From positions 1-64,000 of the forward strand of contig JASANE010028631.1 in NCBI GenBank assembly GCA_030248225.1: a stretch of DNA of 64,000 nt. Direction: 5' to 3'. The notes below the pieces were generated by a model. It searched no databases, was not told the DNA's origin, and saw nothing but the letters and a program-made list of their open reading frames with translations. Source of the stretch: Trileptium ribeirensis. Taxonomy: Eukaryota; Nematoda; Enoplea; Enoplida; Thoracostomopsidae. A program made the translations under genes and the position numbers. Of the stretch, positions 1-33,639 are shown one piece after another (position 1 is the stretch's first letter; each line of letters begins with the position of its first letter).

Positions 1-361
1 ACTAGCTAAAAATTTCGAAACAGCATAAACTATAGTAGCCAAACTGAGCCAGAAGTTAGAAAATGGAGAAATCGACCGGATGAAGCGGTTGCTTTCTTTT
101 ACTTCAAAAAACGTATATTACAAATTTCGTAGTACTAGCTAAAAATTTCGAAACAGCATAAACTATAGTTGCCAAACTGAGCCAGAAGTTAGAAAATGGA
201 GAAATCGACCAGATGATGCGCTTGCTTTCTTAAAAACGTATATTACAAATTCCGTAGTACTAGCTAAAAATTTCGGAACAGCACAAACTATAGTAGCCAA
301 ACTGAGCCAGAAGTTAGAAAATGGAGAAATCGACCGGATGATGCGGTTGCTTTCTTAAAAA
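1..361. repeat. Tandem satellite, about three units
   Basis: Three head-to-tail units start at 1, 134 and 259, each opening with ACTAGCTAAAAATTTCG. Unit 1 is 133 bp and unit 2 is 125 bp; the difference is an extra segment after the GCTTTCTT stretch in unit 1. The third copy loses homology near 361. Units differ by a few substitutions. The array runs off the left edge, so its true length is unknown. Confidence 0.93.
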
Positions 362-5573: not shown

Positions 5574-5858
5574 TGTCGGTTTGACATCATTTGACAGCAG
5601 GTTTCGGTGTCAACCTCCCTCTGGGACCTCAGCGATCATACCAAAATACTAGACACGTGCGCAACCAATATCGAGCGGGGTCCGAACACACCCCGTGAAG
5701 CGCGCCTGCGGCCTGCTAAGCTCCATAGCTTCTTGGGCCTGAGCAAGAAAAGTGCCTAAATCGTAACACCTATGGTCCGCCCTTGAGGTTGTGATAGCCG
5801 GGCTCGTATGGGCATGGTGTTAGGAAGTTGCGCCATGCAGCTGCGTACCGTTATTACA
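5574..5858 (+). repeat. 5' LTR
   Basis: Begins TGTCGGTTTGACATCAT and ends TTATTACA, giving TG...CA termini. It aligns over its whole length with 20392-20677, with about 15 substitutions and a few short indels, the largest cluster lying 17-30 bp from the start. This divergence of roughly 6% indicates an old insertion. Confidence 0.88.
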
Positions 5859-7330
5859 TCGTTGGGGGCTACGCCGTGAGGCGTCTAAAATTTTGTTTAA
5901 CCCCACGATGCGAGTTTAAAATTTCTGTCCCACCCACACGCCTTAAGGCGTCCATTTTATTTCGGTGATCGCAACGAGTGTAACCGTTTGTAGGACTTTT
6001 GGAACATTTCCCAAACAGAGTTCACATAGGTTAAGATTTTAGTTTTGCAGGGACCTCTCGCAAATGGAACGTGTTGCTATTTGTGTACCTTGCCATTGAT
6101 TTATAATTACTTGCATGTGCTATTACCTTCTGTGCGCTTAGCCTATTTTGTGCCTCCGCTCTCGTACTTCTTAGCCGGCGCTATGGTGGATTTATCCTGG
6201 CTCCACTAGAATTTTATGTGTGAAGTCTTCGCTTGCGTTGCAGTCGTCGACCCTATCGCCCAAACGGTCTTTTTGCGTGCATCCAATCGATGGGTAGGCA
6301 CTATTTCAGGAATTGTGTGTTGACTTAACTCGCTTAATTAACAACAATCTACTAATTGCTATCAATATATACTAATTTACCGGAGTATTCGGTTTTGTAA
6401 CTGGTTGCTTAATTTCGACACGGTATTCGTATTTCGTCTACTACCTCGTCTGTTTCCGGCTACTGGGACCGCTCGTCTGACATTGACGCACCCGCCGTTC
6501 GAAAAGTACATTATTTCAACGGACATCTCGATTATTCGGTGACTGCTGGGACTCGTTATAATAACCTGGGACTATTGAGCGTCGTTATTAACCTTCGACC
6601 GGAACTCTGTTTCGTAACCGTGATTCGCTCTGCCGAGTCGATTTGGATCCTGCGCAATTCAAATTCATCGCTGTTGCCTACGTTTTCGAGCACTTTAAGA
6701 GTCATCGTCGACTGCTTCACGGGCGTGGACATTTCGCTGGACAACTCGAGTACGTGGCGTCAGAATCGTGATCGCGCGCTGAACGATTTGGCCTGGGACT
6801 TTCTGAATACTGCTGACTAGACATTGTAACGTTTATTTTGTTATTTACGTATCATTTGTTGTTTTGTAGCGTTAACCTTTGCTTGATAATATTTTGTGCT
6901 TTAACTTGCCTTAGTGGTTTGCATTTCTTCATTTGTTAGCCCGTGTTCCGATCAAAGATTTGCCATTATTATTGTAGTTGGGTTCGTGCGTTGGCAACGA
7001 AGTTGAATTGACTGCTACCTAGTGTTATTACCATTGTCATTGCGGACCGACGTTTTCTGTTTGTTTATTTATCGCTAACAAGGATCGTTGGGTTTCATTG
7101 ATAACAAGTGTGCGTTTTGGTTATTCTAGACGGGATAAAGTTTTTGCTGACCTGGAGACTTGGTAACAAAACCGGTACGTACTTTGGATTGATTGCATAG
7201 CGTTTGTCAAAACCGCCTAAATAGCATCCGATTTAAGAGATTAGACCGCTAGTTAGCCTTCGAACTACTCGTGACTTGACGTATTCTCAATTCTTTACGT
7301 ACCTGAAATTCCAATACCATTGTTGTGCCC
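5859..7330 (+). other. Long untranslated leader of the LTR element
   Basis: About 1.47 kb separates the 5' LTR from the gag start, with no recognisable coding sequence. It contains an ACGCCTTAAGGCGTCC-like palindrome near 5938-5953. A leader of this length may contain packaging or translation signals, but none is identifiable by eye. Confidence 0.55.
5863..5880 (+). promoter_or_regulatory. Possible primer-binding site
   Basis: A TGGGGGC-initiated segment begins 4 nt after the end of the 5' LTR, where Ty3/gypsy elements usually place a site complementary to a tRNA 3' CCA end. I cannot assign the tRNA. Confidence 0.3.
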
Positions 7331-9160
7331 ATGGACTCCCGCGTTAATCATAACGGAGACTTGGAAACCAACGAGTTTCTTGGCTGGACTGACGGACACA
7401 TGGAGGACGACTTACGTGCCAGGCCCCGACGTGCCGCCGGCACTAGTGAGCGACCGCTCACTCCCCCGCCCCGACCCCCCGGACAACTCCGTCGAGGAGA
7501 AACATCTGAGTCACCTGAACTGGATACGAACACTGCCAACGCTATTCTGCACAACCTGACTACCCAACCAGCTGGTCCCCCTATGATCCCTTTGAGATAT
7601 ATGCCAACTTTTGATGGGAAACCTGGAGGCCAGGACTTCGAGGACTGGGTCCGAATGTATAATCGTCTCGCCAACGCCAATGGTTGGGACGATCGTCGAA
7701 AATTAATTTGCGTTCCAGCTCTCTTGCGTGGACCGGCAAGGGAGGCCTTTGAGGGCCTTCCACCGGGAAAACACCAAGGTTTCCTAGGACTAGTTGCCAA
7801 CTTACGCTTTTTATTTTCGTCGTCCCGCCGACCGGGAAAATCATTGTCAGGACTGTGCACACGACAACAAGGAGCAAACGAACCAGTCGCGATGTACGGT
7901 TTAGAATTGCAGAAGTTGTGTGATCGCGCTTTTCCCGACATGGAAGATGAGCAGCGGGACAAAATGCGTCGAATGTTTTTCAAAAGAGGCTTACGACCTG
8001 AGGTGCGTAGGCAGGTTCTCAACCAGATTCATGAGTGTGAAACGTTTCGGGATACCGTGGGCGTTGCTAAGCGGTATGAGGACGCTAGCGCTGCTTGCCC
8101 CGACCCGGACGCGCCTGCCGCTAGTAAGCCTCGTGCTAAAATCGTAAATTCCTAACTTGAGGAAGGAGGTGAAGGCCTGATCACACAGCTTCAAAACATG
8201 ATGGAGGAACATCGTAAGGCGAACAATAGTAACAGCGATACAATAAGTCGGTTGCTGGATGTAATTGATAAAAGGGTCGAGAACCCGCGCCAGCTCAATG
8301 CTCTCGCGCTGCCCTTTGTGCCTAGCTCACCTGCTGCGCCACTGTATTTCCCGATACCGCATATTACTTGTTATCGCTGCGGAGAACCAGGTCACGTCAT
8401 GCGCGAATGCCCATATAATGTGCGTTACCCGCCTGCCGCCGTGAACGGTGTGCCGCGCAATGTCGAGCCAGCCCCAGATTACGCATCTGGAGCCGCGTAA
8501 TGTCGAGCCAGCCCCAGATTACGCATCTGGAGCCGCGCGTCGAGAGCTAGGACAGCTAGAACCAAGAAATGGTGTGGGTGCATACCCACGAAAAAATAAC
8601 TATAATGCGGGCCGAGGAAGCCCACCGCCACAGTTTCGGCGAGCTGAGAACGGAAACGGATACCGGAATAATTCCGGGTGGAACAATCCACCCAATGCTG
8701 GAATGCGACCTAGCGGACCAAACCAAGCGGGACCGCAATATGGCCGTTCGCCGTCGGGATTCGTTGTAATAATCGCGGAAACGGAGAATATGTTGCCAAC
8801 CGCCCAGTGGACAACTACAACAACCGGCCGGCACAGGCCTATGGATACCAACGGGCCCAAAGCGAACGACCCCAACCTAACAGAGTCATGGGGCCCCAGC
8901 AGCAGTCTGGCCGATTTTACTCACGGGACGACGGTAATCGGAACAATGGCGCTGTACCGCGCCGGCGATACCAATTAAATTGTAGCGCATCGCAAGGTAA
9001 TGGAAATAGAGAATTAAGCCCAGCCACTACTCATCTATTAGAAATACTCAGTCGTGAGCTCGGTATGATTCAAGGTAAACTAGGGCATAGTGAACCAACT
9101 GGACGAGTGAACGCTATTGCGAGTACAGACGAACACAGTACGACGATGGCGGATATTTGA
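7331..9160 (+). pseudogene. gag: gag polyprotein (capsid and nucleocapsid), interrupted
   Basis: The likely start is the ATG at 7331; the frame is open a little further upstream only through a GTG. The first ~270 codons contain a Ty3/gypsy capsid signature, with a conserved FDG..QDFEDWVRMY-like segment near 7608-7660, and proline/arginine-rich N-terminal sequence. An in-frame TAA at 8153 interrupts it, but the same frame continues into a nucleocapsid with one CCHC zinc knuckle (CYRCGEPGHVMRECP, about 8369-8413). A 40-bp tandem duplication (8461-8540) then shifts the frame, and a second shift lies near 8760. The C-terminal third is rich in Asn, Arg, Gly, Pro and Gln, as expected of an RNA-binding tail, and stops at 9158. 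Gag would assemble the particle and package element RNA in the cytoplasm. This copy cannot make full-length protein unless the stop is read through. Confidence 0.88.
8461..8540. repeat. 40-bp tandem duplication inside gag
   Basis: The 37 bp beginning TGTCGAGCCAGCCCCAG is identical at 8461 and 8501; the unit is 40 bp. Because 40 is not a multiple of 3, the duplication itself breaks the gag frame just after the zinc knuckle, and the first copy ends in a TAA. Confidence 0.93.
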
Positions 9161-9194
9161 TAAATCGAAATGCCGATCGGGACGATTTTGAGAT

Positions 9195-10589
9195 ATGGAA
9201 GGACTAGTCGAGAGACACCTGAACGTGATCACGTCTACTTCGTGGACTGATGCCGCGCGTCTTTCACGGAGCCGTTATCTAGTTCAGGGTATGGACAGCC
9301 CCGGACTTATGGAATTGTGCCCTAGGGACGGCGAACCACACAGTAACGAGTCTAACGGCATTGTATATAATAAAGAAAACACAAAGTACCACAAAGAGGG
9401 ATATTTGGGAGAGGGATTGTATATGTCGTGTGTGGACGCACTTAGCGCCGGTGTTGATCCACGTGTAAATATGTTTGCGAGCGAAGTAAATGGCGAACAG
9501 CGAGGCCATCGAAGGATCGATCATTCGAACTATCCGGCCATGCGAGGGCTCGGAATGAACGAACGAACTTTAACCGCAGTGAAAGATAGTAATGGTAGTA
9601 TGGAAATTTGCGAAGAAATGGAAGATGGTTGTGTTCAAGATTAGAGGTTGAGTGATTTTAAAGGAAGTGTTGATTTTATTGCCGGTACTCCCCAGGGAAT
9701 CACCTCAAGGGGGAATTCCGGGACCCCCAGCTCTTTGGAGATGACTGCAGAAATTGTGAGTGAAGATGATGTTGTTGTTGTTGAAGAGCCATTGTTATTA
9801 TTTTCCTCCTCTGTGGCTGGCCATCCATGTGTTGAGAGTGTTGATGATGATGATTCCGGCAGGGAAGCCGATGATGTTGATATGGCTCAGGAAGAATTGG
9901 ATTTATTCGGGTCGCCGTGTGAGGCACCCATGGAGCGTTTAGAGGTCGGCGAGCGACCAGGAATGAGGGAGGCTAGGTTGGATGATGATGGTACCTCATT
10001 TAGGCCGCCTAGTCCTAGTTCCGTTCTAAATTATAGGTCGTATAATGTAGTATGTGGGCCGGACCGCCGCGCAGGACGTCCCTTGTGTGATGATGAGAAT
10101 TGTGTGTCGTATGAATGTACTGATTTACCTAAGTTATTACGCGCTTGTAGCCTTCGCGAATTATTGGAAAGTGATGATGGAAGTGATGTTGATGTAATTG
10201 AATGCTACTTCAAACCGGCGAAGTATGCTACTGATGGACTTGAGGTGACTTTCCCGACCTCATTGGCAAGGGGTTCCACGGTCATTGGGTCCTTCCTTGA
10301 TACTGACCGGGGCCGCCCTTGTCACCCGTACCCAAGCAGAGGTAGCGACGGGTTCGCGGGCGATTGCGCCAATGAAGCGGGTATGATCGTTGGGGCTGAA
10401 AGTATTGCCCGGGGTCTGCCCAGGTACGGGGATGTAGATGGCAGGGTGGCGAATAAAGACTGTACATCGCATTGTGAGGGTCCCGTCGCGCCCACCGTCG
10501 TTAAAGCTCGCAGCGACGTTACTTGCAATGAGTTAAGTTTTTTCAATGAGTCTTGTAGTGAAGTCAGCGTGAAGGATAACGCTGAGTAT
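9195..10589 (+). pseudogene. ORF2 of the LTR element, 5' part (acidic protein of unknown function)
   Basis: The frame opens at the ATG at 9195, 35 bp after the gag stop, and runs to the nested transposon at 10590 with one in-frame TAG at 9642. The encoded sequence is strongly acidic, with Asp/Glu runs around 9760-9900 and 10165-10200 (several GATGATG strings), and is predicted to be largely disordered. I recognise no domain. It continues after the transposon at 13423 in the matching frame. Together the two parts make a 982-codon ORF between gag and env, a position where gypsy elements normally have protease and RT. It might be a structural, matrix-like or accessory protein; there is no sequence motif to choose between these. 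Confidence 0.65.
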
Positions 10590-11022
10590 TGCGTCGTTCA
10601 CGTTTATTTGTGCGCAGAAACTGCACACCATAGCCAGTATGGTCACAACAGTTGCACGCACCTGAAGTCCAGTGCAATGGAAATATCAGATGCATTCTTC
10701 GTGCAATGGTTATAACCTCAGCTCCCGTGAGTGAAAGAAACATAACCATTGCCTGTGCATTTGCAATGTCCATTGCAATCACGTCGTGCGTTTGACGATA
10801 TTATTGCATTCGCGCAGGCAATGAAAACAGGGGTTGCATTCCAGCGTGCAATGTTATCATTATCGGTCTGGTAATTATATTTCTATTTACAAGCTATAGT
10901 GCAGTGGTTTGCACCACTGCAAGAGTGTGTGTAACGGTTTTTACAAATGTACTCTTTCGTGCATTGGTCTAGGTATAAGTGCAAGCAGCAACATTTGTTC
11001 ACATATTTACGTTCAAAAATTC
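10590..11022 (+). repeat. Left terminal inverted repeat
   Basis: Aligns with the reverse complement of 13011-13422 at clearly high but imperfect identity. Contains multiple CATTGCA/TGCAATG strings on both strands. Confidence 0.9.
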
Positions 11023-13010
11023 TCGGGGATTTGTATATTATAAAAAATTTGTCACAAATTCTGTTGGGGCTACATAGAACCCACAAATTTGATAATTTGT
11101 TGGTGCTGCTAAATACGATGCACCCAATAATTTTCTCGTTATTGGTGATGATATACATTATCATTCAGTCATTTGATCATTTATAGGTGGTAATAAATTG
11201 CACGCTCGCAGTAATATTGCGGGTTCAATCAAAACCCATTTAGTTCAATTTTTGTGGGACAAATTTTATTCCCTGTTTCTGCTTTAATAATATGGACCAT
11301 CTATTATCAAATAACAACAAAATGAAGAAAAGGTGTCACACCGAAGTTATTTTACTCGTTGTTTCCTGGGTTTGGTAAAAATTTCGATGGAATCAATATT
11401 ATTCTTGCAGCTAACGATCGGACACCCTGGCAAAGATTTTAGACAAATCGGGCAAACAATTATGTTATATATGGATAGTCACAGTGATATTAGAAAGTTC
11501 AGCAATATCATAGCAACCATAATATATCACAATTAACGAAACGCCTGTGAAATACAAAATTTTGCCATACCTGTTTTGTATGAAGTTTGAATTCGCTGTA
11601 TGAAGTGACATCGCACCACATTAATTTAATCATGTTTAAAGATTAAACTTGAGCATAAAATTTCATTAATATCAAGAAGCGTCGGAGGATTTAACCTTTT
11701 ACTTACTAAATTAATTTACATTTTGAGTATCTTAGAACAATTATACATCGAAAAAAACTTTCGCATTTTGCGAATCTACTTTCAGAAACGTTAGCCAGCA
11801 CAGTGCTAGCATTTCTCCGTAAATTATGTTTTTTCAAATATATTTGTTCAGCGGATTTTATAGACATAGATATTTAGTTGAATAGATGTCGGGGAAGCAA
11901 TGTTCGACGAGCAACATATATATGTGCCTTATATATAAGTTAGCTCGAACACATGTTTCTAACATATTCCTGTCAGCTGGTCGATAATATTTAATGCATC
12001 GCAGATTCTTTAGCCCATTCAATGTAGTAAGACCAATAAATTTTTTCGCATTATTAATCCATCAGTAATTTGAGACTACCCTGCAAATTTATTGCATAAT
12101 AAATTGATAGATTTTGAACTTTAAATGTTTAACAATGGGAAACAGCAAACGTCAGCGTTCGTACCTATGCTACACGTAAATTTGGCTCGCTGCTGCGAAG
12201 AGCTACCGTGCTGACAAAATATCTTTAAAGAAATATTGCCCTTTGTATTAGACCTACAAAAACAGTGGACGACCGACCGCTTCTAACTAGCACACTTAAG
12301 CGTAATCGACATTATTGTGACATGTGTAAATAAGAAGCCTAGATTGATTTTCAGAGTGATGTCTGCACTCATAAGTTGAAAAAAGAACAGTTTGATGAAT
12401 AAATGACTTTAATATAATTCAGTATAGTATAATATAGTAAGGAACATATTAATATGCTCTGTGGTCCTTGACTGAATTTACATTTTGTCACATTTTAGGC
12501 CGTATGGCTAATGTTTACGTTTGCAAGACCTGCTATACTAAGAGATTTTGAGAGAAATAATATCTGGTGGCAAATATAAACAGCTACAACGTGATTATTC
12601 CCCTTTTTCGGTTGGTAATCAGATACGGCGAAGCAAATTTAATACAAAAATAGTCAACGTTAATATTTATTCCAATAGATAGGTTAGTATTACTTTATAG
12701 CTATATAATATAAAAATCTCATAAGGAAACTTACAAAGGCGTCTAAATTTTGCAACTATAAAAATTCTTATAAGAACAGCAATTAAATCCACTGAAAGTT
12801 GATAAATATGCAAGTTTAAGTGAATTTTCGAAAAGAGATGTCGATGGAAATACGTGACAAGGTTTTGATCAGCTTTTGTATTTTTTAACTATTTATATGT
12901 CATATTTCTTCCAGTAGTGTTCATACTGCGTCCGATCTGTAGCCACTCGCCACCTTGTACGGTGGGAAATTTTAGAAATCTTAGCAAACAATATATAGTG
13001 CCAGAGTTTG
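11023..13010. other. AT-rich interior of the nested transposon
   Basis: About 2 kb without a recognisable coding region. The short reading frames here (for example 11333-11536) resemble no known transposase. Confidence 0.6.
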
Positions 13011-13422
13011 TTAAAATTTTTGCACGTATATACGTCAACAAATGCCGCTGCTTGTGCTTATACGTAGACCAATGCACGAAAGAGTGCATTTGTGAAAACC
13101 ATTGCACTATAGCGTGCAAATGTAGATGTCATTACCCGAGCGATAGTGATAACCATTGCACGCTGGAATGCAACAGCTAATTTCATTGCCTGCACGAATG
13201 CAATAATATCGTCAAACGCACGACGTGATTGCAATGGACTTTGCCAATGCACAGGCACATGCAATGGTTATGTTTTTGGTTTCATGGGAGCAGATGTTGT
13301 AACCATTGCACGAAGTATGCATCTGAAATTTACATTGCACTGTAGTTCAGCTGCGTGTAACTGATGTGAGCATACTGGCTATGATGTGCAGTAGCTGCAC
13401 ACAAATAACCGTGAACGACGCA
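13011..13422 (-). repeat. Right terminal inverted repeat
   Basis: Inverted partner of 10590-11022. The terminal 36 bp contain a perfect TGTGCAG-TAG-CTGCACA hairpin followed by the CGTGAACGACGCA end, which is also found at 24135-24147. Confidence 0.9.
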
Positions 13423-14979
13423 TATGTTGAAGTTGTTGAATTAGATGAATTGAAGGAGTCGGTTGAACTCTTATTTGAACGAAACGGATCCGCAGCGAGC
13501 GATGCGAACTATTTTAGCGAAGCGAAAGTGTGTAATCTAAGTCAGGGTACCCCGCAGGAGCGCGATAATGGTGGAAATAAATCAGAGAATGAACTTGGGC
13601 TCCGTGTGACCGTTGCACCAGAGGAGCCTGAGGATAGTTGCGACGAGCGCAGTGATGGTGAGATGGATGAGGAACGTATGCTGGATGATGAGGAATTCTG
13701 CGCCAATTGGGTGGATCCGAATGCCGACTGGTACCGACGCGAACCCAGCCCTGACGCACGAGAGTGGCATAGTGAAGGGGTATGGGAAGTGCGTCGCGAA
13801 CACAACAACGAACTACCACGTGCACCATCAGATGACGGCATTGATTTAAGCTTGCGAGCCAGTCAATTGTCTATCCACTCTGAGGAAGGGAATGGTGCTG
13901 CAGGAGGAAACGATGTGAGTGAAGGCGGCGATAGTGGCAGTATCGCTACGGGAAGTGTGAACGAGATGAGTTCGGATCCACTGGTCGAGAACGTTCGTGG
14001 AGACCCTATCGAAGGGACGCCTTGTATGCGCCTGGGTAATTTAGGTAGCGCCACTGATACGTTGGTCGACATTTCCAGCGATATATTGGGACCCGTCGAA
14101 GAGGTGACTAGTATGCCCTCGGGTAATTCAGGTAACCCAAACGAAGTAGGTACGACCACTGAGAAATCCGTCGAAGGGATACCAAGTATGTCCCCGGGTA
14201 ATTCGGAAGAATCAGTGAGCTTGATTAGTGACGACTCGGACACGTGTATGGGACAAGTGAATTTGCTTAACTTTATACAAGAAGCTAATGACGAACGCAT
14301 ACACCAACTGGACGAACGATTATTGGGCATGTCCGGACTTTGTCTTCCCAATAATACGCCAATTGAGATTGGACGAGTTAGAGCAGTGACGGACAAGGAA
14401 CGAAACCGAATCCTTGGGACCGACACACTGTTCACTATATCTGCGGATCATACCGAGACTGCAGCTTATCGATACCCTCGTATTGAATTGACCGAGGATG
14501 CGCATAACGAATTAGCTGAGGGACTTATACAAATTAATTTTAGGGCTAGTGAGATTAATGCTGAATTCGGACAACCTTTGGCATTGAAACCGCAGGCTCT
14601 CTTCTATCGGAGAGCAATACTCGTAATGGAGCAGCTAAATAATTTGAGCCGACTCTTTGAGCTCCGTTTCGAAGTTATCACACGAGCCACCTTACAGCGA
14701 GACGCTGGCATGTTAAGCAGTATACTAGGTATGGCTTCTCCAATCGGGCACTGCATGACCGGAATATATCTTGGCCCCGTAACTCTTGCTTCGTTGGAAT
14801 CTTTCATAGAACTGGTGGGCCAATGCGTGAATGGCCACACGCTCCAACAGGTTATTGAGAGAGAATTCGAGGAAGATTTTAGTAGGGATCCGGTATGTCG
14901 CCAGTGCCAGGAATGCCATACGAGAGATTCACAGGACATAGGCTCAAGCTGTTACTTTTTCGGTCAACGAGGAAAGTAG
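13423..14979 (+). pseudogene. ORF2 of the LTR element, 3' part
   Basis: This is the continuation of the acidic ORF after the nested transposon; the first codon TAT (13423) is the duplicated target copy. The first ~280 codons are acidic and Ser/Gly-rich with repeated short blocks of the type PSGNSG/SPGNSE near 14030-14210. From about 14275 the sequence becomes more globular, with predicted helices and hydrophobic periodicity (about 14490-14860). It ends in a Cys-rich segment (VCRQCQECH and a further Cys, about 14893-14955) that could bind metal. The stop is at 14977. The frame immediately downstream (frame of 15065) is open from 14999, so ORF2 and the next ORF may once have been one reading frame or linked by a frameshift. 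I recognise no integrase signature here. Confidence 0.65.
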
Positions 14980-15064
14980 AATTATGACGGCACGCTAAGT
15001 ACTCCTCCCGGATGGATACGTTGCTCCTCATTGGCCTTTCTATGTCGGAATTCAGTCGGCCAGA

Positions 15065-17377
15065 ATGCAGAATACTTTTCGCGAGGCAAATCTCGAGTTA
15101 CACGACCTCTTGTGCGAAGCGCCCTATCTGATCGAATTCATTTATCGGAACCAGGAGACACGCGGTGTTCCGATCAACTTCTTTGTTGACCAAGCAATAG
15201 GTAATATGGAATTCGACGACGACACCCACCGACTTGCTCGACTAGTACTGCTAAGCGCACGCTTGAGACTTTTGCGGCGCCCCGATATTGCTGCACTGCT
15301 TGCGACAGAGGGAGACACGTCTACTGGATTGAAGTTGAGCAGGGATCGCTTAATCTCGGAACTATGCTTGTTTCCGGACGACGACACCAGCTGCTCCGTC
15401 CCGAATTCGGACGAACAATTAACCACAGCATTAGCCGCTTAGCTCGACTCATCTGACGAAGAGTCGGAGGACGTCTCCGACAGCGATTCCGTCCAGCAGG
15501 AATGCCTAACTGAGTCGGGTGACACGGAAACGAGCGACGGGGAGACTAAAAGCGACACCACGGAACAAGTCGCGAATAACGAAACCATGAGGGAACCCAA
15601 TCGAAACGGGGTACGATCCTCTTCACCGAGCCTTAGTAATGGCCTCGGACATCCTTCAGGTATGTGGAGGGTCTGTACAATTCTGTTGTTACTTTGGCTC
15701 TCAGCGCTCAGCTCTAGGCGCGCAACGCTTTCGCCATTTAGTGATTCAATCTCGCGCTTAGGTGCTTTTGTCAATGGACAGGTAGGAGTGGACATCGAGC
15801 CTCATGGCTTGGTGGTCACCTCTGACCAGACAACGCATTCGCCAGTGGTATTGCAGTTATCACTCCCAGATTGGGAACGTAAGTCCGATCCTTATGTGAG
15901 TAAATTCTGTCCACCTTATGAAGCGAACGGATCATGTCGCGCTGACTGCTGTCGGAAAAAGTACTGGACACCAATTATTATTCGCTACTCGTGCATTATT
16001 TTTCCGTCGCGAATGAACAACTATGCGATGTTACCAATCATCGAGAAAAGCGCTTTGCTAGCTTGATTTCCGCCGTTGCAGGTGCCGTCTCAGGTTTCTT
16101 AGGCCTGGGAATGGCTTTTGCCAATGGAGTACATATCAACAATGTTAACCAGCAGGTTACTGTCCTCGAGAAATTCATGCGCGAGACTAACGATGTCTCC
16201 TTTCGAAATACTAAGGCCATAAGGCAGCTGACCCGAGCTAATGGGGACATTTATGCATTTCTACACCATAGCATGCAAGAGGTAGTCTCTATGATAGAAC
16301 AGGTTAGGTGTGCCGATCAGAAAGAGATCGCGCACCATCAGTTAATAGATCACATCCTTCGAGCCAATATGCGCTCGTCGGTACAGGCTATAATGGAATC
16401 CATGCTTAACGGCGAACTGTCTCCCGGCGTCTTCGATGTCGTTATGTTACGACGGTTATTATCCATGGATCCACGCATTTCCAAGACCATTCTCATGTCT
16501 AGCCTATCAGTTCGGTCGTGTTATGCCCGTAAGTGTGGACCTGACAGCGTTCCGCTTCGGGTTTATTTTGCAATTACCATTGCCGAAGCGCAGTGACGTT
16601 CCACCATATTTTCGGATCTATAACACTGGCTGGAATGCACCTGCCACGCTGACACAGCTGAGATTGCCGCTACCTCAATACGCCGCCCGCTTGGGACACA
16701 TTCGCTTTGAATCACTTAACTTGGGAGCATGCAAGCATAGACCAGGAATTGCTTTCTGTGAACCACACGCGCTGATAACTGATCATAGCACCAGCTGCTT
16801 AGAATGGATAATTGCAGGTGAACATGTGCCTGACACCATTAAACACACATGCAGCAACCGCTCGCTGATAGGCCCACTTGCCAATGACACGTCTGTACAC
16901 ACGACTATGCAGGAAGTATTAATTCGGACTAGTGCACCTGAGGTCATATTGACAAATCGAAGACAACTAGCCCACGTTACGTTGGGTAAGTCAATAAAGG
17001 TCCCGCCTAATGGAGTCTTGTGGTTCCCACAGGGAAACTACACTCAACTAGTTGTAGGGTCGATAGTGCTCACTAGCATGCTGAAACCCGAGAAGATTAC
17101 AATAAAATTCGGACCAAATATCACTATTGACCGGCTATCCGGTATCAAATTAAGACCTTTGACTTGGAACTCACTCGACAACGCCAAGGCTATAAATTTT
17201 CGGGCTGCGCAGATAGCTAAGGATCAAGTACGTAGCGTGGTTAATCTTCCCGCTTTGGAATATACAGAATTCTTGCCCTACTTCCTCGTTACCGTCGTTG
17301 TCGGAATGATCAGTCTGATTTATTTTATGACCAAATGCAAGGTTCCGCCTAAGTACGGGTATTATATTCCCCGATGA
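15065..17377 (+). pseudogene. env: env-like class I fusion glycoprotein ORF, interrupted
   Basis: An ORF starting at 15065 runs through one in-frame TAG (15440) into an acidic linker and then a hydrophobic signal-like segment (15662-15715, Met followed by a Leu-rich core). A frameshift lies near 15950-15990. The next frame holds a furin-type site REKR (16042-16053), immediately followed by an Ala/Gly-rich hydrophobic stretch (16054-16140) like a fusion peptide, then heptad-rich sequence to about 16300. A second shift lies near 16500-16600. The third frame holds Cys-rich ectodomain, several N-X-S/T sites, and a membrane anchor (about 17271-17330) with a short basic tail ending at 17377. This layout is typical of virus-derived fusion proteins of retroelements and would mediate membrane fusion at the cell surface. 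I cannot assign it to the baculovirus F or any other named family. Broken by at least one stop and two shifts. Confidence 0.75.
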
Positions 17378-17543
17378 TTCCCATGTCGTGGACGACTAAT
17401 TAAGTCCGAGTGTAAACCTAGCAATCCGATGGATCAGAGCAAAACACCGATTACCGAGTGCCCCACCCGCGGAGGACGACTTCCCTTATACAGACAGAAC
17501 CTCGCCGACTGAGGTCACGGTTGGGCCTTCGGGAACGCCGCGC

Positions 17544-18194
17544 GTGTCCGTCGCGTCCAGCCGTGCCCCACGCCGCTCGAACAGGCTATTGACATCACGT
17601 AACTCATCCGAGGAGGAACTTGTCTTCATCGAGGACGACGAACTATTTGTCGCTCCCACTCGTGATTCACGTCGTGTACCTTGCCAAGGTGTGTTCACTA
17701 GACAGCTAAACACTACGAACGCAGGCAACACTCCATTGCTTATTAATGCAACCATACTTGGCACCCCAGTTATGACACTTGTAGACACTGGAACCGACGT
17801 CTCAATCATGTCCCAAGCCCTGGCTGCTCGTTTAGGTTTAGTCCCTCGTGACACGAACTACACTCGTATAGTATCAGCAACACAACAAGAATTGACCATA
17901 AGTGGAGTGGTGAAAGCACCGATTACAATAGGATCGCTCAGTACGCCATGTGACTTCCAAGTAGCAACTGACACTCCGTACGAGTGTATTCTTGGCACTG
18001 ACTTCATGGCTTTGTTACCACATGTAGCCATAAACTTCAAAGACCGCTGCCTGGATCTATCCAACGGAACTGAAAACTGTTCGGCGCCTTTCGCCGACCA
18101 AGGGGATTATAGACCACCAGTCATCAACGTGGTGACCAGAAAATACACTGAAGTACCACCAAACACAGAATTGTTTATCAACGCTATCCCGTAG
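17544..18194 (+). pseudogene. pol: pol: retropepsin-like aspartic protease
   Basis: The reading frame contains the retropepsin active-site sequence LVDTGTDVSIM with the catalytic Asp at 17784-17786, followed by a hydrophobic second half and an ILGTDFM motif near 17989-18009, the conserved ILG.D region of Ty3/gypsy proteases. The ORF is open through a GTG at 17544; a frame upstream of it is not obvious, so it was probably expressed as part of a longer polyprotein. It would cleave Gag and Pol inside the particle. A frame change separates it from the RT at 18301. The stretch 18195-18300 contains stops in this frame. Confidence 0.87.
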
Positions 18195-18300
18195 ATCACT
18201 CAACCACCGACCGCTCAAGCGCAGACCCCTTTATTAGGGACGTTGCTATCGCCCACTCTCTGGTAGTTACTGGCCGACGCATGATATCCCGATAGCACTG

Positions 18301-20175
18301 ATGAATTTTGGGAACTTTCCCGTTGCTATACACGCCGGTCAGACAATAGGACACATTGAAATGCTTGATGATAACGAGGTCGAGTTCTTATATGACAGTA
18401 ACAAGCGTCTGCTACAACTTGACCCTCCGAAGCGCACTAAGCAATGTAATAATATCGGGGTTACACGAGACAATGTTGTGCAAATCATAAGCGACCAGAA
18501 GAAGACAATTAACACCGAGCGGTCTATACAAGTTTTGGGTAAAATTGTTTTCGGACAAACGACCATTAACCCTTTCGATCTCAAACAATTGAAAACGACT
18601 ATCTCTGAGAATGCAGACATATTTAGTGTACACCCATTCGACCTAGGAAGATGTGGTGTACACCAGCATAGGATAGTCACTGGAGACGCAAGGCCTATTA
18701 AACAGGTACCCTACCGTCTAGCACACTCACTGCGAGAGCCACTACGTGAGGAATTAAACAATATGGTAGAAGCAGGTGTTATAACGCCATCAGATTCACC
18801 TTGGGGTTCTCCCATAGTTTACGTCACTAAAAGTGACGGCACCTTACGTTTGTGTGTCGATTTCCGCAAGCTCAACGTAGTTGCAGAACGTGACTTATAC
18901 CCACTACCCCGCATAGATGACATATTGGGATGTCTCAGAAACACCAAATTCATGTCCAGTTTAGATCTTAACAAAGGTTTCTGGCAATTAGAGCTGGACC
19001 CCGAGACCAAGGAGAAGACCTCCTTCGTCACTGTCCACGGATAGTATGAATACAACGTTCTGCCATTCGGACTGAATTCTTCACCAGGCGCATTTCAAAG
19101 GTGCATGTCGATCATATTAAAGGGTTTAGAATGGGAACGATGTCTCATCTACATAGATGTCATACCGGTCTTTTCACCCACGTTTGAACAACATTTGGCT
19201 GACCTCATCACCGTATTTGACAGGTTCCGTAAGGCCAATCTTAAATTGAAACCCTCCAAATGCCAGTTTGGACAGAAACAATTAAAATATCTCGGACACA
19301 TCATTAGTTCAGAGGGAGTTAAACCCGATCCCGAGAAAACCGCTGCAATAGACAATTACAAACGACCGGAAACTCTCAAACAATTGCAGAGTTTCTTAGG
19401 ACTTGTAGGATACTATCACAAATTTATACCACACTACTCTGAAATTTGCGAACCACTCAACGCACTCCGACGAAGGGACAGTGAATTTAAGTGGACACCG
19501 CAATGCGAGGAAGCATTCGGAAAACTACGTAAGGCATTAGTCCAAGAACCGTTACTCATATATCCGGAATTTTCTAAACCTTTTATACTCCAAACGGACG
19601 CTTCTGGATATGCCCTCGGGGCTGTGCTTTCACAAAAGACCGGTAAGAGGACATGGCCAATCGCTTACGCGAGCAAGTCGCTCGTAGACTATCAGCGCCG
19701 ATATCCTGCCATAGAGACTGAGGCTCTTGCCATACGATGGGCTGCCTTACACTTCAGGCACTACCTACTTGGATATGAATTCCATGTCGAGACTGACCAT
19801 AACCCTCTCAAGGCACTGTTCGAGAGACCACCGTGGAATTCACACCTAGCCCAATGGCGTAATGAGCTATTGATGGAATTTGGTGGTTTCAACATCGAAT
19901 ACCGACCAGGTAAGGCTAATGCCAATGCTGACGGACTTTCACGTGATCCCCGACATGACGTGGAATTTTCTTATTCCTCGGACGAAGCTGAACACCAACA
20001 AGACCATCCGCGAATGGTTGCTGTAGCCGTTAAGGGACAGGACCGTGGTAAAGGCAAAGCTCCAGCCAAACCACCCCGACGACTTCCCACCGAAGAAGCT
20101 TGGAAACGACTTACTCGGCAGCTCATGGGACTTTTCCCCGAACGCTCCAGTCAACCTACCACCCGAGTACGTTAG
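18301..20175 (+). pseudogene. pol: pol: reverse transcriptase and RNase H, catalytically dead
   Basis: This is a Ty3/gypsy RT. The segment around 18679-18870 carries the RT N-terminal signature (IKQVPYRL, SPWGSPIVYV, LRLCVDFRKLN), and a tether helix precedes it. An in-frame TAG at 19042 interrupts the palm; the same frame continues. The active-site motif at 19150-19161 reads YIDV, with valine replacing the second catalytic aspartate, so this copy could not polymerise even if read through. RNase H follows (about 19570-19950) with the expected acidic residues: Asp in QTDAS (19597), Glu in IETEA (19714 or 19720) and Asp in ETDHN (19795), and the closing NANADGLSR motif near 19918. After a basic Lys/Pro-rich tail the ORF stops at 20173, about 215 bp before the 3' LTR. 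No integrase follows. Confidence 0.93.
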
Positions 20176-20391
20176 AGAACGCTTCTATCGTATGTTTGGA
20201 GGACCTTGTTATGATCCTATACCAGACCCCACACGTTTCTTCTTCTGTGGAGACATAGACATGGAGACAAAGTGTTCGACCAGGGATAAGCTAAGTGGGA
20301 ATCAAAATTTATCTTGTAAAATCAGACTTATCACGCATTTTACTACGAATTCCGCTGAACTAAACAACTTCCGTTAGACTAGGATATGGAA
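20176..20391 (+). other. Short segment between RNase H and the 3' LTR
   Basis: This is too short for an integrase (usually over 400 codons in Ty3/gypsy elements). One frame stays open to 20375 but shows no recognisable domain. No clear polypurine tract lies next to the LTR; only a weak AGGATATGGAATA string (20381-20393) is present. Confidence 0.6.
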
Positions 20392-20677
20392 TATCGGTTT
20401 GACATCATGACCTGTGAGCAGGTTTCGGTGTCAACCTCCCTGGGGGACCTCAGCGATCATACCGAAATACTAGACACGTGCGCAACCAATCGGGCGGGAT
20501 CCGAACACACCCCGTGAAGCGCGCCTGCGGCCTGCTAAGCTCCATAGCTTCTTGGACCTGACCAAGAAAAGTGGCTAAATCGTAAAACCTATGGTCCGCC
20601 CTTGAGGTTGTGATAGCCGGGGTCGTATGGGCATGGTGTTAGGAAGTTGCGCCATGCAGCTGCGTCCCGTTATTACA
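20392..20677 (+). repeat. 3' LTR
   Basis: Partner of 5574-5858. It starts TATCGG instead of TGTCGG and ends TTATTACA. The following bases ATTATACC do not match the bases before the 5' LTR. Confidence 0.88.
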
Positions 20678-23600
20678 ATTATACCACAACATTTATTTCC
20701 GTAAGTACAATGTGAAGGCGCGAAATATATAATGTTACAGTATTCTTTTATAACGCAGTTTGTAATATATACTTCTTTGAACACATATGAAAGCTGCGAG
20801 AACGTACAGCTTCGGAATTTTAACAAAGAGCTGAATGAGAATAAACGTGGCTATAAAAATCAGCTATTTTTATTTATTTCACTCCAACCCGCTATATTAA
20901 TAAGTAGCTTCGAAGAAACATTCAGAACTCGTTGTACATCGAAATACTGCGCTTATGAAATTAGAAATTTCACATTGCTGTAAAATTGTGCATATATTTA
21001 GGTCTAACACGTAAATACTTTTATTTTAAGTGCGGATTTGTATTCAGTGCACAATATTGACACCGTAAACTGTGAAATTTTCTTTGCTTTTTAAGAACAA
21101 TAAATTGCGACAGATATTTAAACACTTTTTTGTGGTGAACATTTCGAATTCGCCGCAATCACGTAGACGATATGTGTGGTTCGCACGTTTTAACATGATA
21201 CAGACTATGTAGTCCTAATTCTTAGGTCATGGTGTAGTCCGCAGCCTGTTGACGTTTAATTGTAGTTTACTGTTTTAGATATGTTTATATATATTTTAAT
21301 CATACATACTTATAGGGGTAGGGGTGTAATCCCCTAGGTTTCCGACATGCCCCCTAGGTTCGGGTAACCCACCCTGACAGATAGACCAATGGAATGATGA
21401 CGCCGTAAGCGCTGCACCTTAACCTGCTCCTCCCCCCTCGCACTGACTAGCTGACCACTCACACATCTATCTACCTCCATCCACCGACGACCTTCCCAAC
21501 TCTCCCGCCGACCGGCTTACCCCCTCGGACTTCGGTGCATATATGGTTGCACATATATTAAGCAACACAATATTTACGGTGTTGGTATATAACTCAAACT
21601 ATATGCATTAGGTGATTACAAAGGAAATATGGCTTTTTAGATCCTCTGCCCTGAGTAAGCGTAGATTGTACGTAGTCACATTGTTTCCGCAAGCTATGCT
21701 AATAACTAGCTGTGAAGTTTGTGTTAAGCTCTTTTGACAAACTGCATTTCAAATTGTTGCTGTTGCTGCAATTTTGAGGCTTGAAATATTTAAGACTGTG
21801 CACAAATTAGTTTACAAATTGTCCGGCAGTGCAACTGCACAATTGTAATAGTCTCTTCGTCATTAATATAAGAAATTTGATATCCTGAATAGACGCTTTG
21901 ACAAATTGAGCACATAATGTACATACGATAAAATCCCAGCTAAAGTCGTATTTGTATCTATTCTTATTACAATTTATTACTTCTATATGTGATTGTGCAA
22001 GGCAGAAACATATACATGAGTTCCGTCATCGAGCCAATCTCAATATGAAATGCAATTACAATTACTACCGACAATACATGCGAAAATCACTTATCTTTGT
22101 TTATCCTTGCTGTTGACGCAATGCCGGAGCTAGGATGGTCCCCACATCCCGACTGGTTGGAGGGTGGGTGGAGAGTACACATATATTTGGAACGACCCAC
22201 ATTTTGGGTATTTTAATCACTTCGAACAGGCGAGTGATTAGCAGTTTCTAGAAAGACGAACTGAAAGTTCCCCAAATATTTGACATGAAAAGACTCGCAT
22301 GACTTTTAGCGCTCCACTCCCGTGTTTTTTGCTATATACGATATTATTCTGAATATAAAACTTGTTCAGATCGACACAAACACAAATGCGCTACGACAAC
22401 ATAGCAGCGCCTCTTCTAACCCCAAATCTGTGATAAAAACTATATAATATAAGCATAAAATATGTGCTATAAAATGTCCAGATATGAGGCCAGCTACACT
22501 ACAGTTATTGAGGGCCCTCACTTCATACTTTGGCGGCACACACTTGGTAGCGCGGGCCCTGATTTGACCCAAAATTACACAGCCTGACAAGCTTTTTCAT
22601 CTAATCTATTTGGCCATTTCATGTCCAGTCCCGTGAGGAAGTCAGCTCAATGTATAATTGTATTTTATATGTTTAAAGCGACACGTCAGCTGCATTTATA
22701 TGTGTAGCTCAAAACTAACAATTTAGTTTTCAATAAAAATATAGCGTCGGAATTTAATCAGGTCAACCGACCGTTCTTCAGCGAAAAGGATAATAATAAG
22801 CCAATATACAATATATTGCTAGCTGATCGTAAGCAATGCAAAAGGCGAGCCCAAACCATACTTTATAACATTGTAGGAACGTGGCAAATACTTCACTGTA
22901 ATCTGTATGTAGTTCAACGATAAACTTGCCTGAAATAGCTTAAATGACTCATATACTAAAATTTCACGACACGTTAAGCTCGAAACGTTGACAACGATAT
23001 AATGATTGTATTGTAGCTAGACGACAGCGAGAGGATTTGCTCCAATAGTAGGTAATTGCTGAAAAATTTTTAGTTTCGTTTCTGTCACCTGTATAAATCA
23101 TCAGTGGCTTGATGGAGTTTCGCAATTATTTTCATTCAATGAATAATATGATTTAATTTTGCACAAAGCATCTTTTTCCATAATTCCGATCAAATTTTCA
23201 TCTCAAATTTTCACTAAACTGAATTGAAGTCTTTGTAATTTTTCCAATTTAGAGTGCTCCGACATTTTATATTATATATCGGCTCGGATTGGTTAGATCT
23301 GAGAACTCAGTGGAGAACCAAACCTTTGCTATATTACAGTTTTGTATCGAAGACGAGGATTGCTCGCGCTTACCAGATTTTCGAAGCCCAACCATGATTT
23401 TATGTCTCCCGTTTTAAGGAGCAGAACAGCTCTTTCAAGCAATTAAACCTCTGCCAGCAACTAGTGCCATATGGTATACATGGCGAAGTAACTACACAAA
23501 ATTTAAATCAGTACTGCATGGCGGTATAGGCTAAATCACAAAGACGATGACGAAGTACGAATAATTATAAAGTCATTGAAAAATAATTTATTTCCAATAT

Positions 23601-24103
23601 GACAAAGCCTGCATCAAAATATTCTAAGTGCATCTAATTGCCCACAACTACAAATTCGTGAAACTAAGTTCTCACAGAAACAATAATGTAGACAGTTATT
23701 CGATACACATTTAGGGGCCTAAGGTCATATAATTGCTGCAGCGGGTGCAAATATAACAACAGTTGCACTCAAGAGTGCTTTGGCAGGTACCATTTGGCAG
23801 GTGTCTGCATTGGCTAAAAATGTTGCGCAAAAGATTACAGTTATAATGGACATTATGTGACTAATGATCAAAATTATAGCGCTCGTAAATTTAAGGAACT
23901 ACTTCCTTTCCACCTTCAATTCCAAGGTCGTGTGAAATGCATGATATCCAAGCAATGAACTATACTATTTCACATCCACGTACCATCGTAGTTGCAAATG
24001 CACTTGGGCAGCAATGAGTTTTACAATTGCGCAGAACGTGCATTCGAGGTTATCACTGCACCACAACTAATTGGTGTGCATTTGTAGTGATGGTTGCTGC
24101 TGT
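20678..24103. other. AT-rich non-coding region
   Basis: Only short chance reading frames are seen. A GC-richer patch at 21310-21560 contains CCCCTAGGTT-type direct repeats (21343 and 21361), and another at 22120-22180 is G-rich; both look like transposon debris of unknown family. Confidence 0.55.
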
Positions 24104-24147
24104 CTGCGGTGTGCAGTAGCTGCACACGTATTAACGTGAACGACGCA
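24104..24147 (-). repeat. Second terminus of the 10590-13422 transposon family
   Basis: The segment contains GTGTGCAG-TAG-CTGCACAC (a perfect 8-bp-stem hairpin) followed by GTGAACGACGCA, closely matching the right end of the nested element (13385-13422). Upstream (about 23740-24100) there are further TGCA-rich motifs, but no continuous alignment. I could not find the matching left end within the window. Confidence 0.7.
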
Positions 24148-27100
24148 ATACTGGATTTCGATAAGAAAACGTTCCGAACGAACCTGCATGGTAGACCCAA
24201 CGTTACACTTTAGTCTGAAATTTGATGGCATAGTTTACCATGCCCCTACCTATTACCAATGTTACAATTTAATACACTATCCTGTCTAATTCACTATTTT
24301 GTCGGTTTCGGCGATTTGTTGCCTAACGAAATTTAACCGCAAACATGCTTTATTAATCTTTTATAGTATTTGTCTTGCAGTGTTCCATTCCACGGCCATT
24401 GCCTGCGACGTTCTGGAAATTTTACAACTAACAAAAGTTCTCTCGTTCCCCGTGGTAAATATTGTGTCAATTTATCGTATTTTTAACTGGCATAAATTTA
24501 CTAGTTAAGTCAGTCTATTCAACGTTTTAGATAATTTTGGTTGTATATAATTTGCACATATACACTTTAGCAGCTAGGCGTGTCCTGTGTGCGAGGCCTG
24601 TGAACTGAACACTTATTCCCAATTTAGAAGCTGATGTACATACTAGCCACAATTCTCTATCATTTTCAGATGATCATTATGTAATGAATTCGAACTGCTG
24701 ATAAGTTCAAGCAAGTTTACCTAAGACTATAGTTCTTAAACTTTATCCTAAACGCTGGGGTGCGTGATTCCAAACGTCTTAGAATATCTAGTTCGTGTGA
24801 GATTTCGACTATCTTAAAGTTGAGGCGTTTTGTTTCGGTTTTGTCGGTTTGTTAGTTAACCATTTTACTTCCCCAAAAGATGTAACATACTTTTGTGGCA
24901 GCTGTGTTATCGAGCTCTACATTTTACTCTGGGATCGTGTCTAAAATTGACTCAAACTTACACAATTTTCTATGTTTAGTTGTAAGTTTCCAATGATTAT
25001 TTCGATAATCTTAACTTCTCGAGTAAACGTCAATTCAACATAACTTTGTGATCAACCCGGACACGTTCCAAACTAGTCCCATACTCCACTATAATCTCCA
25101 CGACCGCACCTCTAAATTTTTCTCTCTCTCTGTTATTCATTTGCCAACCCGTCTTCCCATTTATAATACTGCATAAGATTTTATGTATTGCTCGTGGCGT
25201 ACGTTGCGCTGCGTTACCGTTATATGCTTAGTTAGAAACGCTCGTATTTTTGAAATTTCACGAATGTTGGTCCTACTTAGGCTAGTGCGAGCGAAGTGAT
25301 AGTCGTTAAAATGACTGACTATGAACATCTTAGCAGAGAGAACTATAGAAGCAAACCGTGAAATGAAACTCAAGTCCCGAATTTATGAATGACATATGAA
25401 AACTTAGGGGGCACTGGTGGAAAAACAAATAAAGCGCGAAAAACTCAACGATCAAGTCGCTGTGAAAAAAATTGATTTTAGCTCTCGTGCGATATGAGGG
25501 CAAACTTTACTCAGATCGGGCCTAATTTTCCAAATAACGCGGCGCGTGCTGTGCATTATGTTTTGTCCTTAAATTGACTATTTATTCATGAGGGCTAAAA
25601 ATTTAACTATAGCTATATCACGTCGGAGTCTTTTATTCCTAAGAAAAAATAAAATTTTAAATCGATAAACCGACGATAAACGAAACCTAGGTAAGTTTGT
25701 TATCTGTTTGCTGAAGTATTCAACGACAATTGAGAACAGCTAGAAATCAAACTTGTTTGCGGTTCTTCAAAAACGTGGCTAATTTTCCGACGCTAGGACA
25801 CGTCTCTAAGCCATAGTTTACTACATTCGATACATCTGAATCTACGTCCACCACGGACTTATTGCTTCTAACCATTTTGTCTTAGTGATGCTAGAGAATT
25901 TAAATGCACAGTACGAAAACAAAACATGGTTCACACACGATCATAATTTTGCCGGTTCATCAATGATTCACTGCTTCACCAACATTTAAAATACATATGC
26001 CTATTTGTGGCTTAAACTAAAGCGCTATTTGAGGGTCTATGTAACTCGGCTTATTAAATTCTTTTGTAACTTTGAAAGGCGGGGCTACACATTCAGTGAC
26101 CTCATTCTGTTCGGATCTTTTCCAAATGTTTCTTGGTCGTACCTTGAAGACGCGGTTTGTACGGGAGCATTTGGAACTTGCGGCATCTGGACGCATCCCC
26201 TGAGCATCGTTTACCATATAGCCTTGTTACAAGTTTCCTTCACGTCAGACTGAATAACATCGTGATTAAATTACTGTGTAAACCCAACCCAAATTTCACA
26301 TGGGGACGTGGGAATAGGCGAACATTTTGTCCATTGGTCCGCACTGTGCATAACTCCAAAGTTTTGTTGAAATCTCCTACTTGCAAATCTGCACGAAAAT
26401 CAGTTTAGGCTATTTCGAGATCCTAGGCAACGATTCAATAGAGCTGCTACGACTGAATTTGTGTTCGAGCATATCACGGACACATGTAGATTTTTCCATA
26501 CAAAAGGCAAAAGAAAACGAAACCAAATGCAAAAAAACTAAATTAGAACACAGCAAATTATTGTACAGAAGCGTTGTCCTTTATGATTAACTAACACAAA
26601 TCTTAGAATTCTATCCGTGTTATTAGTCTTTGCCATAAGTGAATCCTCGCTTCGAACGCCGGCCTGGGCCCCTAAATTTTCTTAGCTTCACGTAATGCTG
26701 GACTAAACTTAAAGTAACCTCACTAACCATCTTATTTTGCAATACCCGATAAAGGAACCCACATCCATTGTTAAAGAAATACCAAATCTGATTCAGTTCA
26801 GTGGTTTTACAACTAAGTAACGACTATTCATTAATTTAACGAACATTTCATGTAGGTTTTGAATTAGGACTCGTTTCTGATTGCCAACAACTTTAATGTA
26901 ACTGTGACGTAACAAACGGAACGGTCTTATTATTTATGAATTTTTGTTTTCCACGAACAAAAACCTTGTCAATTTAAATCCGGTAAAATTGTGTTTGCAA
27001 GCAAATTTGACGTTAGCGAAACGACATTAGCTTTTATCGACCAACTCGAAAATGTTCCATAACTCAAATTTTTTTTGAAAAAATACAATTATATGGTTAG

Positions 27101-27350
27101 CGGGTCATCCAAAATTTAGTTGTGCGTAATGTCAGCAAATTTTATCAACCATTCTATGGACTACGTGGTGCCCGCAAGAACCCACGTCCTCTTTCCTATA
27201 GATGTCAGTCGTCTGGTCCCAAGCATAGCATGACCACCAAACGTTCAACTAAACTACATAAATTTTGAAAAACCAAATCGCATTCCAATATTTAAATCAA
27301 GATTCGCCCAAAGAAATTAGCTTTCTAAGAAGTTTATAATAGCTCGTTAC
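24148..27350. other. AT-rich non-coding region
   Basis: No gene or element recognised. Reading frames of up to about 80 codons lack Met starts in good context and resemble nothing known. Confidence 0.5.
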
Positions 27351-28559: not shown

Positions 28560-28628
28560 GCGCCAGGGATCGAAACCGAAACGTACGGTTGAAACTTGTG
28601 TACACAAACCACTGAGCTATCTGAGAGC
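28560..28628 (-). repeat. tRNA-derived SINE head or tRNA pseudogene
   Basis: On the minus strand a pol III A box TAGCTCAGTGG (complement of 28609-28619) is followed 31 bp later by a B box GGTTTCGATCC (complement of 28567-28577), one inserted T away from consensus. The acceptor-stem halves do not pair and the anticodon arm is not a clean cloverleaf, so it is not a functional tRNA. The spacing and the boxes fit a tRNA-derived SINE. Confidence 0.6.
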
Positions 28629-33630: not shown

Positions 33631-33639
33631 GCGGCATTC

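What the first reader, a model, noticed from the sequence alone, without database searches (positions are those of the whole stretch)
5574..20677. LTR element with env between gag and pol, and no visible integrase
Between two matching LTRs the plus-strand order is gag, unknown acidic ORF, env-like fusion protein, protease, RT, RNase H. Known Ty3/gypsy env-carrying elements place env after integrase, and Gmr1-type elements that move integrase upstream still have one. RNase H here ends ~215 bp before the 3' LTR, too little for an integrase, and I see no HHCC or DDE signature elsewhere in the element. Either this is a lineage with a rearranged genome, or a recombinant between two elements.
Basis: partly seen in the sequence, partly recalled or inferred. 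Interest (0 to 1): 0.75.

Follow-up and report, generated by a model that had tools for sequence, protein, structure and literature searches.

The report
Decayed retrovirus-like element, env before pol
This is a decayed, retrovirus-like jumping element, probably of an animal, whose presumed envelope gene sits in front of its enzymes instead of behind them and whose integrase gene is missing; the unusual gene order has a published precedent in planarian flatworms, and the missing integrase is most likely a deletion.

Summary
A 15.1-kb LTR element (TG...CA LTRs 5582-5858 and 20400-20677, 4.0% substitutions) carries, on the plus strand, gag, an acidic ORF2, an env-like region, protease, RT and RNase H, and no integrase that our profile search finds. 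A 2.8-kb terminal-inverted-repeat element is nested in ORF2. The copy is broken by stops, frame changes and an altered RT motif.

The env-before-pol order is not unprecedented: Burro (GYPSM1) elements of planarians have env in-frame between gag and protease (PMC6431247), but with integrase after RNase H. Here too the protease frame opens 22 nt after the env frame closes and has no Met before the protease domain, so it was probably read on from env.

Differences from Burro: no integrase, no dUTPase, half the size. Coding-like sequence continues from RNase H almost to the 3' LTR and holds a weak, disputable match to the start of the integrase core, favouring deletion. Env identity rests on anatomy; no homologue was found. 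No target-site duplication is visible. The genome search did not complete, so other copies were not examined and 'integrase-less lineage' versus 'damaged copy' stays open. I favour the latter.

The parts
5582..5858 (+). 5' LTR, 277 bp, TG...CA
   Evidence: identity with the 3' LTR extends 6 nt further left (5576-5581)
5863..5880 (+). possible primer-binding site beginning TGGGGGC, 4 nt after the LTR; tRNA not identified
   Evidence: sequence inspection; not tested against host tRNAs
7307..8500 (+). gag: capsid-like region (weak match) and CCHC zinc knuckle; stop at 8153-8155 interrupts the frame
8452..8538 (+). 40-bp tandem duplication where the gag coding signal changes frame
8539..9644 (+). 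partly coding-like region linking gag to ORF2, frame changes, stop at 9642-9644
   Evidence: no Pfam match
9645..10589 (+). acidic ORF2, left part (frame 2)
   Evidence: no Pfam match
10590..13422 (+). nested element without coding signal, ~430-bp terminal inverted repeats (80%), flanked by TAT/TAT, inserted in ORF2
13423..15442 (+). acidic ORF2, right part (frame 0 then frame 1)
   Evidence: Pfam, NCBIfam, PHROGs and PDB gave no match better than E 0.19
15443..17377 (+). env-like region in three overlapping open pieces: signal-like stretch 15659, REKR 16042, fusion-peptide-like 16063, transmembrane-like 17270
   Evidence: no homologue found
17400..18194 (+). aspartic protease with a 114-codon upstream extension and no Met before the domain match
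18238..19869 (+). reverse transcriptase and RNase H, interrupted by a stop at 19042-19044 and with an altered YxDD motif at 19150
19870..20377 (+). coding-like tail after RNase H (frame 0 to about 20140, then frame 1); no integrase found; weak match to the region before the first catalytic Asp of integrase in 20041-20148
20400..20677 (+). 3' LTR, 278 bp, TG...CA

Best explanation
A decayed copy of an env-bearing Ty3/gypsy element with a Burro-like layout: LTR - gag - acidic ORF2 - env - protease - RT - RNase H - LTR. Inferred working cycle: LTR-driven RNA; a long polyprotein, or an env-pol product reached by frameshifting or splicing; env segment threaded into the lumen by its signal sequence and returned to the cytosol by the transmembrane stretch, so that protease-RT-RNase H stays on the same side as Gag and could be packaged through the env anchor; protease and furin-like cleavage; reverse transcription primed next to the 5' LTR. 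Integrase originally followed RNase H, as in integrase-bearing RT relatives, and was lost by deletion or recombination in this copy or a recent ancestor. Shown: parts and order, no integrase found, broken state, nested insertion, protease frame without its own early Met. Inferred: env identity, topology, polyprotein, cause of integrase loss.
For: Domains and order. A coding signal trained on gag, protease and RT pieces runs on the plus strand from 7239 to about 20318 outside the nested insert, weak in several stretches. The protease frame opens at 17400, 22 nt after the env frame closes at 17377; its first Met is residue 124 while the protease match starts at residue 115. Frame arithmetic: 2,833 bp plus a 3-bp duplication is 1 modulo 3, matching frame 2 on the left and frame 0 on the right, so ORF2 was one frame before the insertion (coordinates). 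Four in-frame stops against 8.6 expected from the LTR divergence, so the stops fit simple decay. Published precedent for env in-frame between gag and protease with integrase downstream. RT relatives with integrase domains: 37 of 120 listed. The tail after RNase H is coding-like, and its match to integrase profile positions 142-178 is reached by 17 of 20,000 shuffles.
Against: The integrase remnant is weak: 3.8 bits; against 11 integrase-core-bearing relatives, one alignment is reached by 0 of 200 shuffles, one by 9 and nine by 55 to 186; one unrelated stretch of the window (33297) scores higher (8.1 bits); the catalytic Asp is not there; Pfam sees nothing. The linker that precedes integrase in relatives is not recognised (167 of 500 shuffles as good), though 15 of 15 control linkers tried are. 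The second half of the tail does not match integrase (40 of 500 shuffles as good). Coding scores of env and of parts of the gag-ORF2 junction are near the null, whose maximum is 0.31. Env has no detectable homologue. No other copy was seen.
Confidence: 0.6

Rival explanations
1. A lineage that permanently lacks integrase and either borrows integrase from other elements or enters the genome by end joining or recombination.
For: No integrase in 2,124 six-frame pieces. No exact target-site duplication of 4 bp or more beside the LTRs, which integrase would normally leave (established knowledge). The 6 nt before both LTRs are identical (5576-5581 and 20394-20399), as an unprocessed cDNA end might be. 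Coding-like sequence runs on to about 80 bp before the 3' LTR.
Against: The RT has integrase-bearing relatives around it (17 of 62 tips in the enclosing group of a midpoint-rooted tree, a group without support value). The 6 nt may simply be the true LTR start. One broken copy tells nothing of a lineage. Weak integrase-like match in the tail.
Confidence: 0.15
2. A chimera made by template switching or ectopic recombination between two different elements, giving LTR-gag-ORF2-env from one and protease-RT-RNase H-LTR from another.
For: No target-site duplication, as expected when two copies recombine. Frame change at the env-protease border.
Against: LTRs match at 262 of 273 aligned positions. One coding bias trained on gag and pol also fits the right part of ORF2 and, weakly, env. 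The protease frame has no start of its own. The same order exists in Burro.
Confidence: 0.2
3. The region 15443-17377 is not an envelope protein but another membrane protein or a chance pattern.
For: No match in Pfam at E up to 10; in NCBIfam and PHROGs only lines far below cut-off (best E 0.025). PDB: best line E 0.0012 for the whole piece, made of two stretches with E 5.8 and 7.1, which I take as chance, and E 0.27 for the third piece. Two protein searches: 178 and 856 candidates, none with E <= 10. The furin-plus-hydrophobic pattern occurs in 16 of 200 shuffles.
Against: Signal-like stretch, furin site, hydrophobic segment, glycosylation patterns and a C-terminal transmembrane stretch lie in the expected order, just before protease as in Burro. 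The searches see only close relatives of similar length.
Confidence: 0.15

Closest known systems
Burro / GYPSM1 giant gypsy-like LTR elements of planarians (PMC6431247: section 7 read whole, and passages; the original Burro paper is not held)
   Same: gag with zinc knuckle, long extra region, then env directly before protease, RT, RNase H; env read on into protease (shown there, likely here)
   Different: Burro is over 30 kb with a 4,873-aa ORF, has dUTPase between protease and RT, extra domains (MATH, BIR, BCL2-like) and integrase; none of these was found here; no sequence comparison with Burro was possible
Insect errantiviruses (gypsy, ZAM); recalled, papers seen only as a search listing
   Same: Ty3/gypsy pol and a furin-cleaved, membrane-anchored env-like protein
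   Different: env is 3' of integrase there (recalled); no Baculo_F profile match here
Gmr1-type Ty3/gypsy elements (passage in PMC6238403)
   Same: Ty3/gypsy with an unusual gene order
   Different: Gmr1 has integrase upstream of RT; none is found here
Bdelloid rotifer TelKA/Vesta/Juno elements (abstract and passages of PMC5408684)
   Same: animal gypsy-like elements with captured env-like ORFs; two bdelloid proteins (P0009, P0017) are among the RT hits
   Different: the env-like gene is a separate ORF3; integrase present

Membership tests
Ty3/gypsy (Metaviridae) | protease, RT and RNase H of the gypsy type in that order | tested here: met
Ty3/gypsy (Metaviridae) | direct LTRs ending TG...CA | tested here: met
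Ty3/gypsy (Metaviridae) | integrase after RNase H | tested here: not met
   with controls; this copy only. I place it in Ty3/gypsy by RT ancestry, as a defective copy, not by a complete gene set
Ty3/gypsy (Metaviridae) | 4-6 bp target-site duplication | tested here: not met
   (exact matches of 4-8 bp)
Ty3/gypsy (Metaviridae) | tRNA primer-binding site | tested here: inconclusive
   TGG-starting stretch at 5863, no host tRNA to compare (one search found none in the window)
Burro | env-like region between gag and protease | tested here: met
   order; env identity by anatomy only
Burro | env in frame with protease in one giant ORF | tested here: inconclusive
   different frames now, 22 nt apart, no early Met in the protease frame
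Burro | integrase after RNase H | tested here: not met
Burro | dUTPase between protease and RT | tested here: not met
   (Pfam on 17400-18194 and 18238-19044)
Burro | BIR, MATH, BCL2-like domains | tested here: not met
   (Pfam on open pieces of at least 100 aa; HHpred-level sensitivity not available)
Burro | sequence relationship to Burro | not testable with these tools
   no named Burro sequence was at hand
Gmr1 | integrase upstream of RT | tested here: not met
Errantivirus | env 3' of pol | tested here: not met

The most novel reading that the evidence does not exclude
A compact element lineage, separate from Burro, in which Env and Pol are made as one membrane-threaded product (so that Pol is packaged through the Env anchor) and which has given up its own integrase, entering the genome by another element's enzyme or by end joining.
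Probability: 0.1. Interest if true: 0.8.

Novelty: new variant of a known kind. Interest (0 to 1): 0.42.

Why it matters
As far as the papers I opened show, the env-before-protease order had been reported for giant planarian Burro elements only (PMC6431247 calls it a first case). Seeing it in a 15-kb element suggests it may recur across animals. Fusing the envelope to the enzymes would then be a standing alternative to the Gag-Pol frameshift for getting enzymes into particles, which can be tested by reading intact copies. The missing integrase matters only if other copies share it.

Tried and rejected
Integrase elsewhere in the window: rejected. Integrase moved upstream as in Gmr1: rejected, no match in any frame. 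A circularly permuted element: rejected on paper, because gag and protease are not adjacent in any rotation. Other copies within the window: none besides the LTR pair (self-comparison; tblastn with 120 RT relatives hits 18286-20211 only). Other copies in viral contigs: four protein scans (RT/RNase H, env C-part, ORF2, protease) gave no relative (the tool warns that records of the window's own genome may be left out). PDB search of env and ORF2 pieces: nothing credible. Known RNA families and tRNAs in the window: none. A pre-integrase linker in the tail: not recognised.

Papers: nine searches ran. Opened: PMC6431247 (section 7 whole, passages); passages only of PMC10309623, PMC6238403, PMC8556966, PMC11410931 and PMC5408684. 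Of these only PMC6431247 describes env between gag and pol. I saw no integrase-less env-bearing LTR element described, but the rest were seen as listings only and the library holds open-licence papers only.
Full report
Observation. The window holds a 15.1-kb element between two direct LTRs, 5582-5858 and 20400-20677, each beginning TG and ending CA. They differ by 11 substitutions in 273 aligned positions and 3 gaps. Six further bases before each LTR are identical (TCGGTT). No exact duplication of four to eight bases flanks the element; the only shared 4-mer lies inside the LTR on one side. From left to right on the plus strand the domains are gag (weak capsid match, clear zinc knuckle), then protease, RT and RNase H. 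Between gag and protease lie a long acidic region without any credible family match and an env-like region. The seven longest plus-strand open frames (550 to 264 codons) exceed the longest in 100 shuffles (220).

Decay. Stops at 8153, 9642, 15440 and 19042 interrupt frames that continue beyond them, and the coding frame changes at about 8450-8540 (at a 40-bp tandem duplication), within 8700-9190, and near 14980, 16000, 16400-16600, 17380-17400, 18194-18238 and 20030-20175. The RT motif that is normally YxDD (recalled) reads YIDV at 19150. With half the LTR divergence as the per-copy distance (2.1%), 8.6 nonsense changes are expected over about 3,262 codons; four are seen. The stops therefore fit ordinary decay since insertion, with the caveat that the LTR clock fails if the copy is a recombinant.

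Nested element. Bases 10590-13422 form an element with terminal inverted repeats of about 430 bp at 80% identity and TAT on both sides. It has no coding signal. ORF2 is in frame 2 on its left and frame 0 on its right; 2,833 + 3 bases is 1 modulo 3, so the two sides belong to one former frame.

Coding signal. A codon-usage score trained on gag, protease and RT pieces, not on ORF2, env or the tail after 19980, was scanned over the element. Windows in 20701-33000 gave a 95th percentile of 0.08 and a maximum of 0.31 (202 windows); antisense windows a 95th percentile of 0.12. The right part of ORF2 (13479-14740) and the pre-protease region lie mostly above 0.08 and agree with the open frames; the left part of ORF2 does so in about half its windows; env and parts of 8859-9260 lie near or below it, so there the evidence for coding is the open frame itself. 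After RNase H the signal stays at 0.16 to 0.31 to about 20318, first in frame 0 and then in frame 1, both frames scoring high around 20000-20200. The tail is thus coding-like rather than a plain 3' untranslated region.

Env. The region has a signal-like stretch (15659, by eye), R-E-K-R at 16042 followed by LISAVAGAVSGFLGLGMAF at 16063, four N-glycosylation patterns in the third piece, and a transmembrane stretch at 17270. The furin-plus-hydrophobic pattern alone occurs in 16 of 200 shuffled elements, so only the ordered combination argues for env. No homologue was found: 178 and 856 candidates, none with E up to 10; no Pfam match at E up to 10. In the PDB one chain reached E 0.0012 with the second env piece, but through two stretches with E 5.8 and 7.1, which I take as chance; the third piece reached E 0.27. 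These searches see close relatives of similar length only.

Env joined to protease. The env frame ends at 17377 and the protease frame opens at 17400. The first Met in the protease frame is at residue 124, inside the protease match that begins at residue 115. The protease thus seems to have no usable start of its own and was most likely reached from env by continuous reading, frameshifting or splicing. The topology would work: Gag and ORF2 in the cytosol, env in the lumen between signal and anchor, protease and RT back in the cytosol. This is inference.

Integrase. A profile from 33 relatives' sequences downstream of RNase H was run against all 2,124 six-frame pieces of at least 20 residues. 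The best line had E 0.19 and lies outside the element; the only line inside it is on the minus strand with E 6.1. Held-out integrases cut into 60-residue pieces were found in 8 of 8 cases tried, of 33. The tail after RNase H, tested alone, scores 3.8 bits at profile positions 142-178, the stretch leading to the first catalytic Asp; 17 of 20,000 shuffles reach this. Pairwise against 11 relatives with an integrase core, one alignment is reached by 0 of 200 shuffles, one by 9, and nine by 55 to 186. One of 430 open-frame windows of the window scores higher, at 33297. The second half of the tail is matched by 40 of 500 shuffles. The linker before integrase is not recognised (167 of 500 shuffles as good) although 15 of 15 control linkers tried are, and Pfam sees nothing. 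I read this as a hint of a deleted integrase, not as proof.

Relatives. The RT/RNase H piece finds 4,601 proteins with E up to 1e-3 among the 7,987 candidates scored; the best of the 120 listed are 50% identical. Thirty-seven of the 120 carry PF17921 and/or PF00665 (hand count). Five listed proteins bear organism names: two bdelloid rotifers, two insects and one fungus. In a midpoint-rooted tree of 121 sequences the window sits on a long branch next to P0110 (support 0.89) inside a 62-tip group, without support value, that has 17 integrase-bearing members. The host of the window is unknown. Its G+C of 0.34-0.51 does not look like Schmidtea mediterranea, described as over 70% A/T (passage in PMC11410931).

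Known precedent. A review (PMC6431247, section 7 read whole; [quoted passage not shown] integrase is listed after RNase H. The present element shares that order but lacks dUTPase, the accessory domains, the size and the integrase. I therefore do not file it as a Burro; it is laid out like one.

Verdict. The order is real and uncommon but already described in kind. The missing integrase is most simply a deletion or recombination in a broken copy.

Noticed in passing
window 32879-41092 and 42315-50477: A very large inverted repeat: arms of about 8.2 kb, 95.6% identical over 8,254 columns, 1.2 kb apart, carrying ORF fragments with DUF4371 matches below the Pfam cut-off (hAT link recalled). Either a real palindrome or an assembly foldback.
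   Followed up: partly
window 10590-13422 and 24100-24152: The tip of the nested element's inverted repeat recurs at 24100-24152 (83% over 53 bp), so the family may have another trace nearby.
   Followed up: no
window 27339-27731 and 51934-52489: Diverged direct repeat in two blocks, about 75% identical.
   Followed up: no
window 1-361: 125-bp tandem repeat, 2.8 copies, starting at the window's left end.
   Followed up: no
window 6413-6820: A 135-codon open frame in the long leader between the 5' LTR and gag, without Pfam match; the coding score is briefly raised there in another frame.
   Followed up: partly
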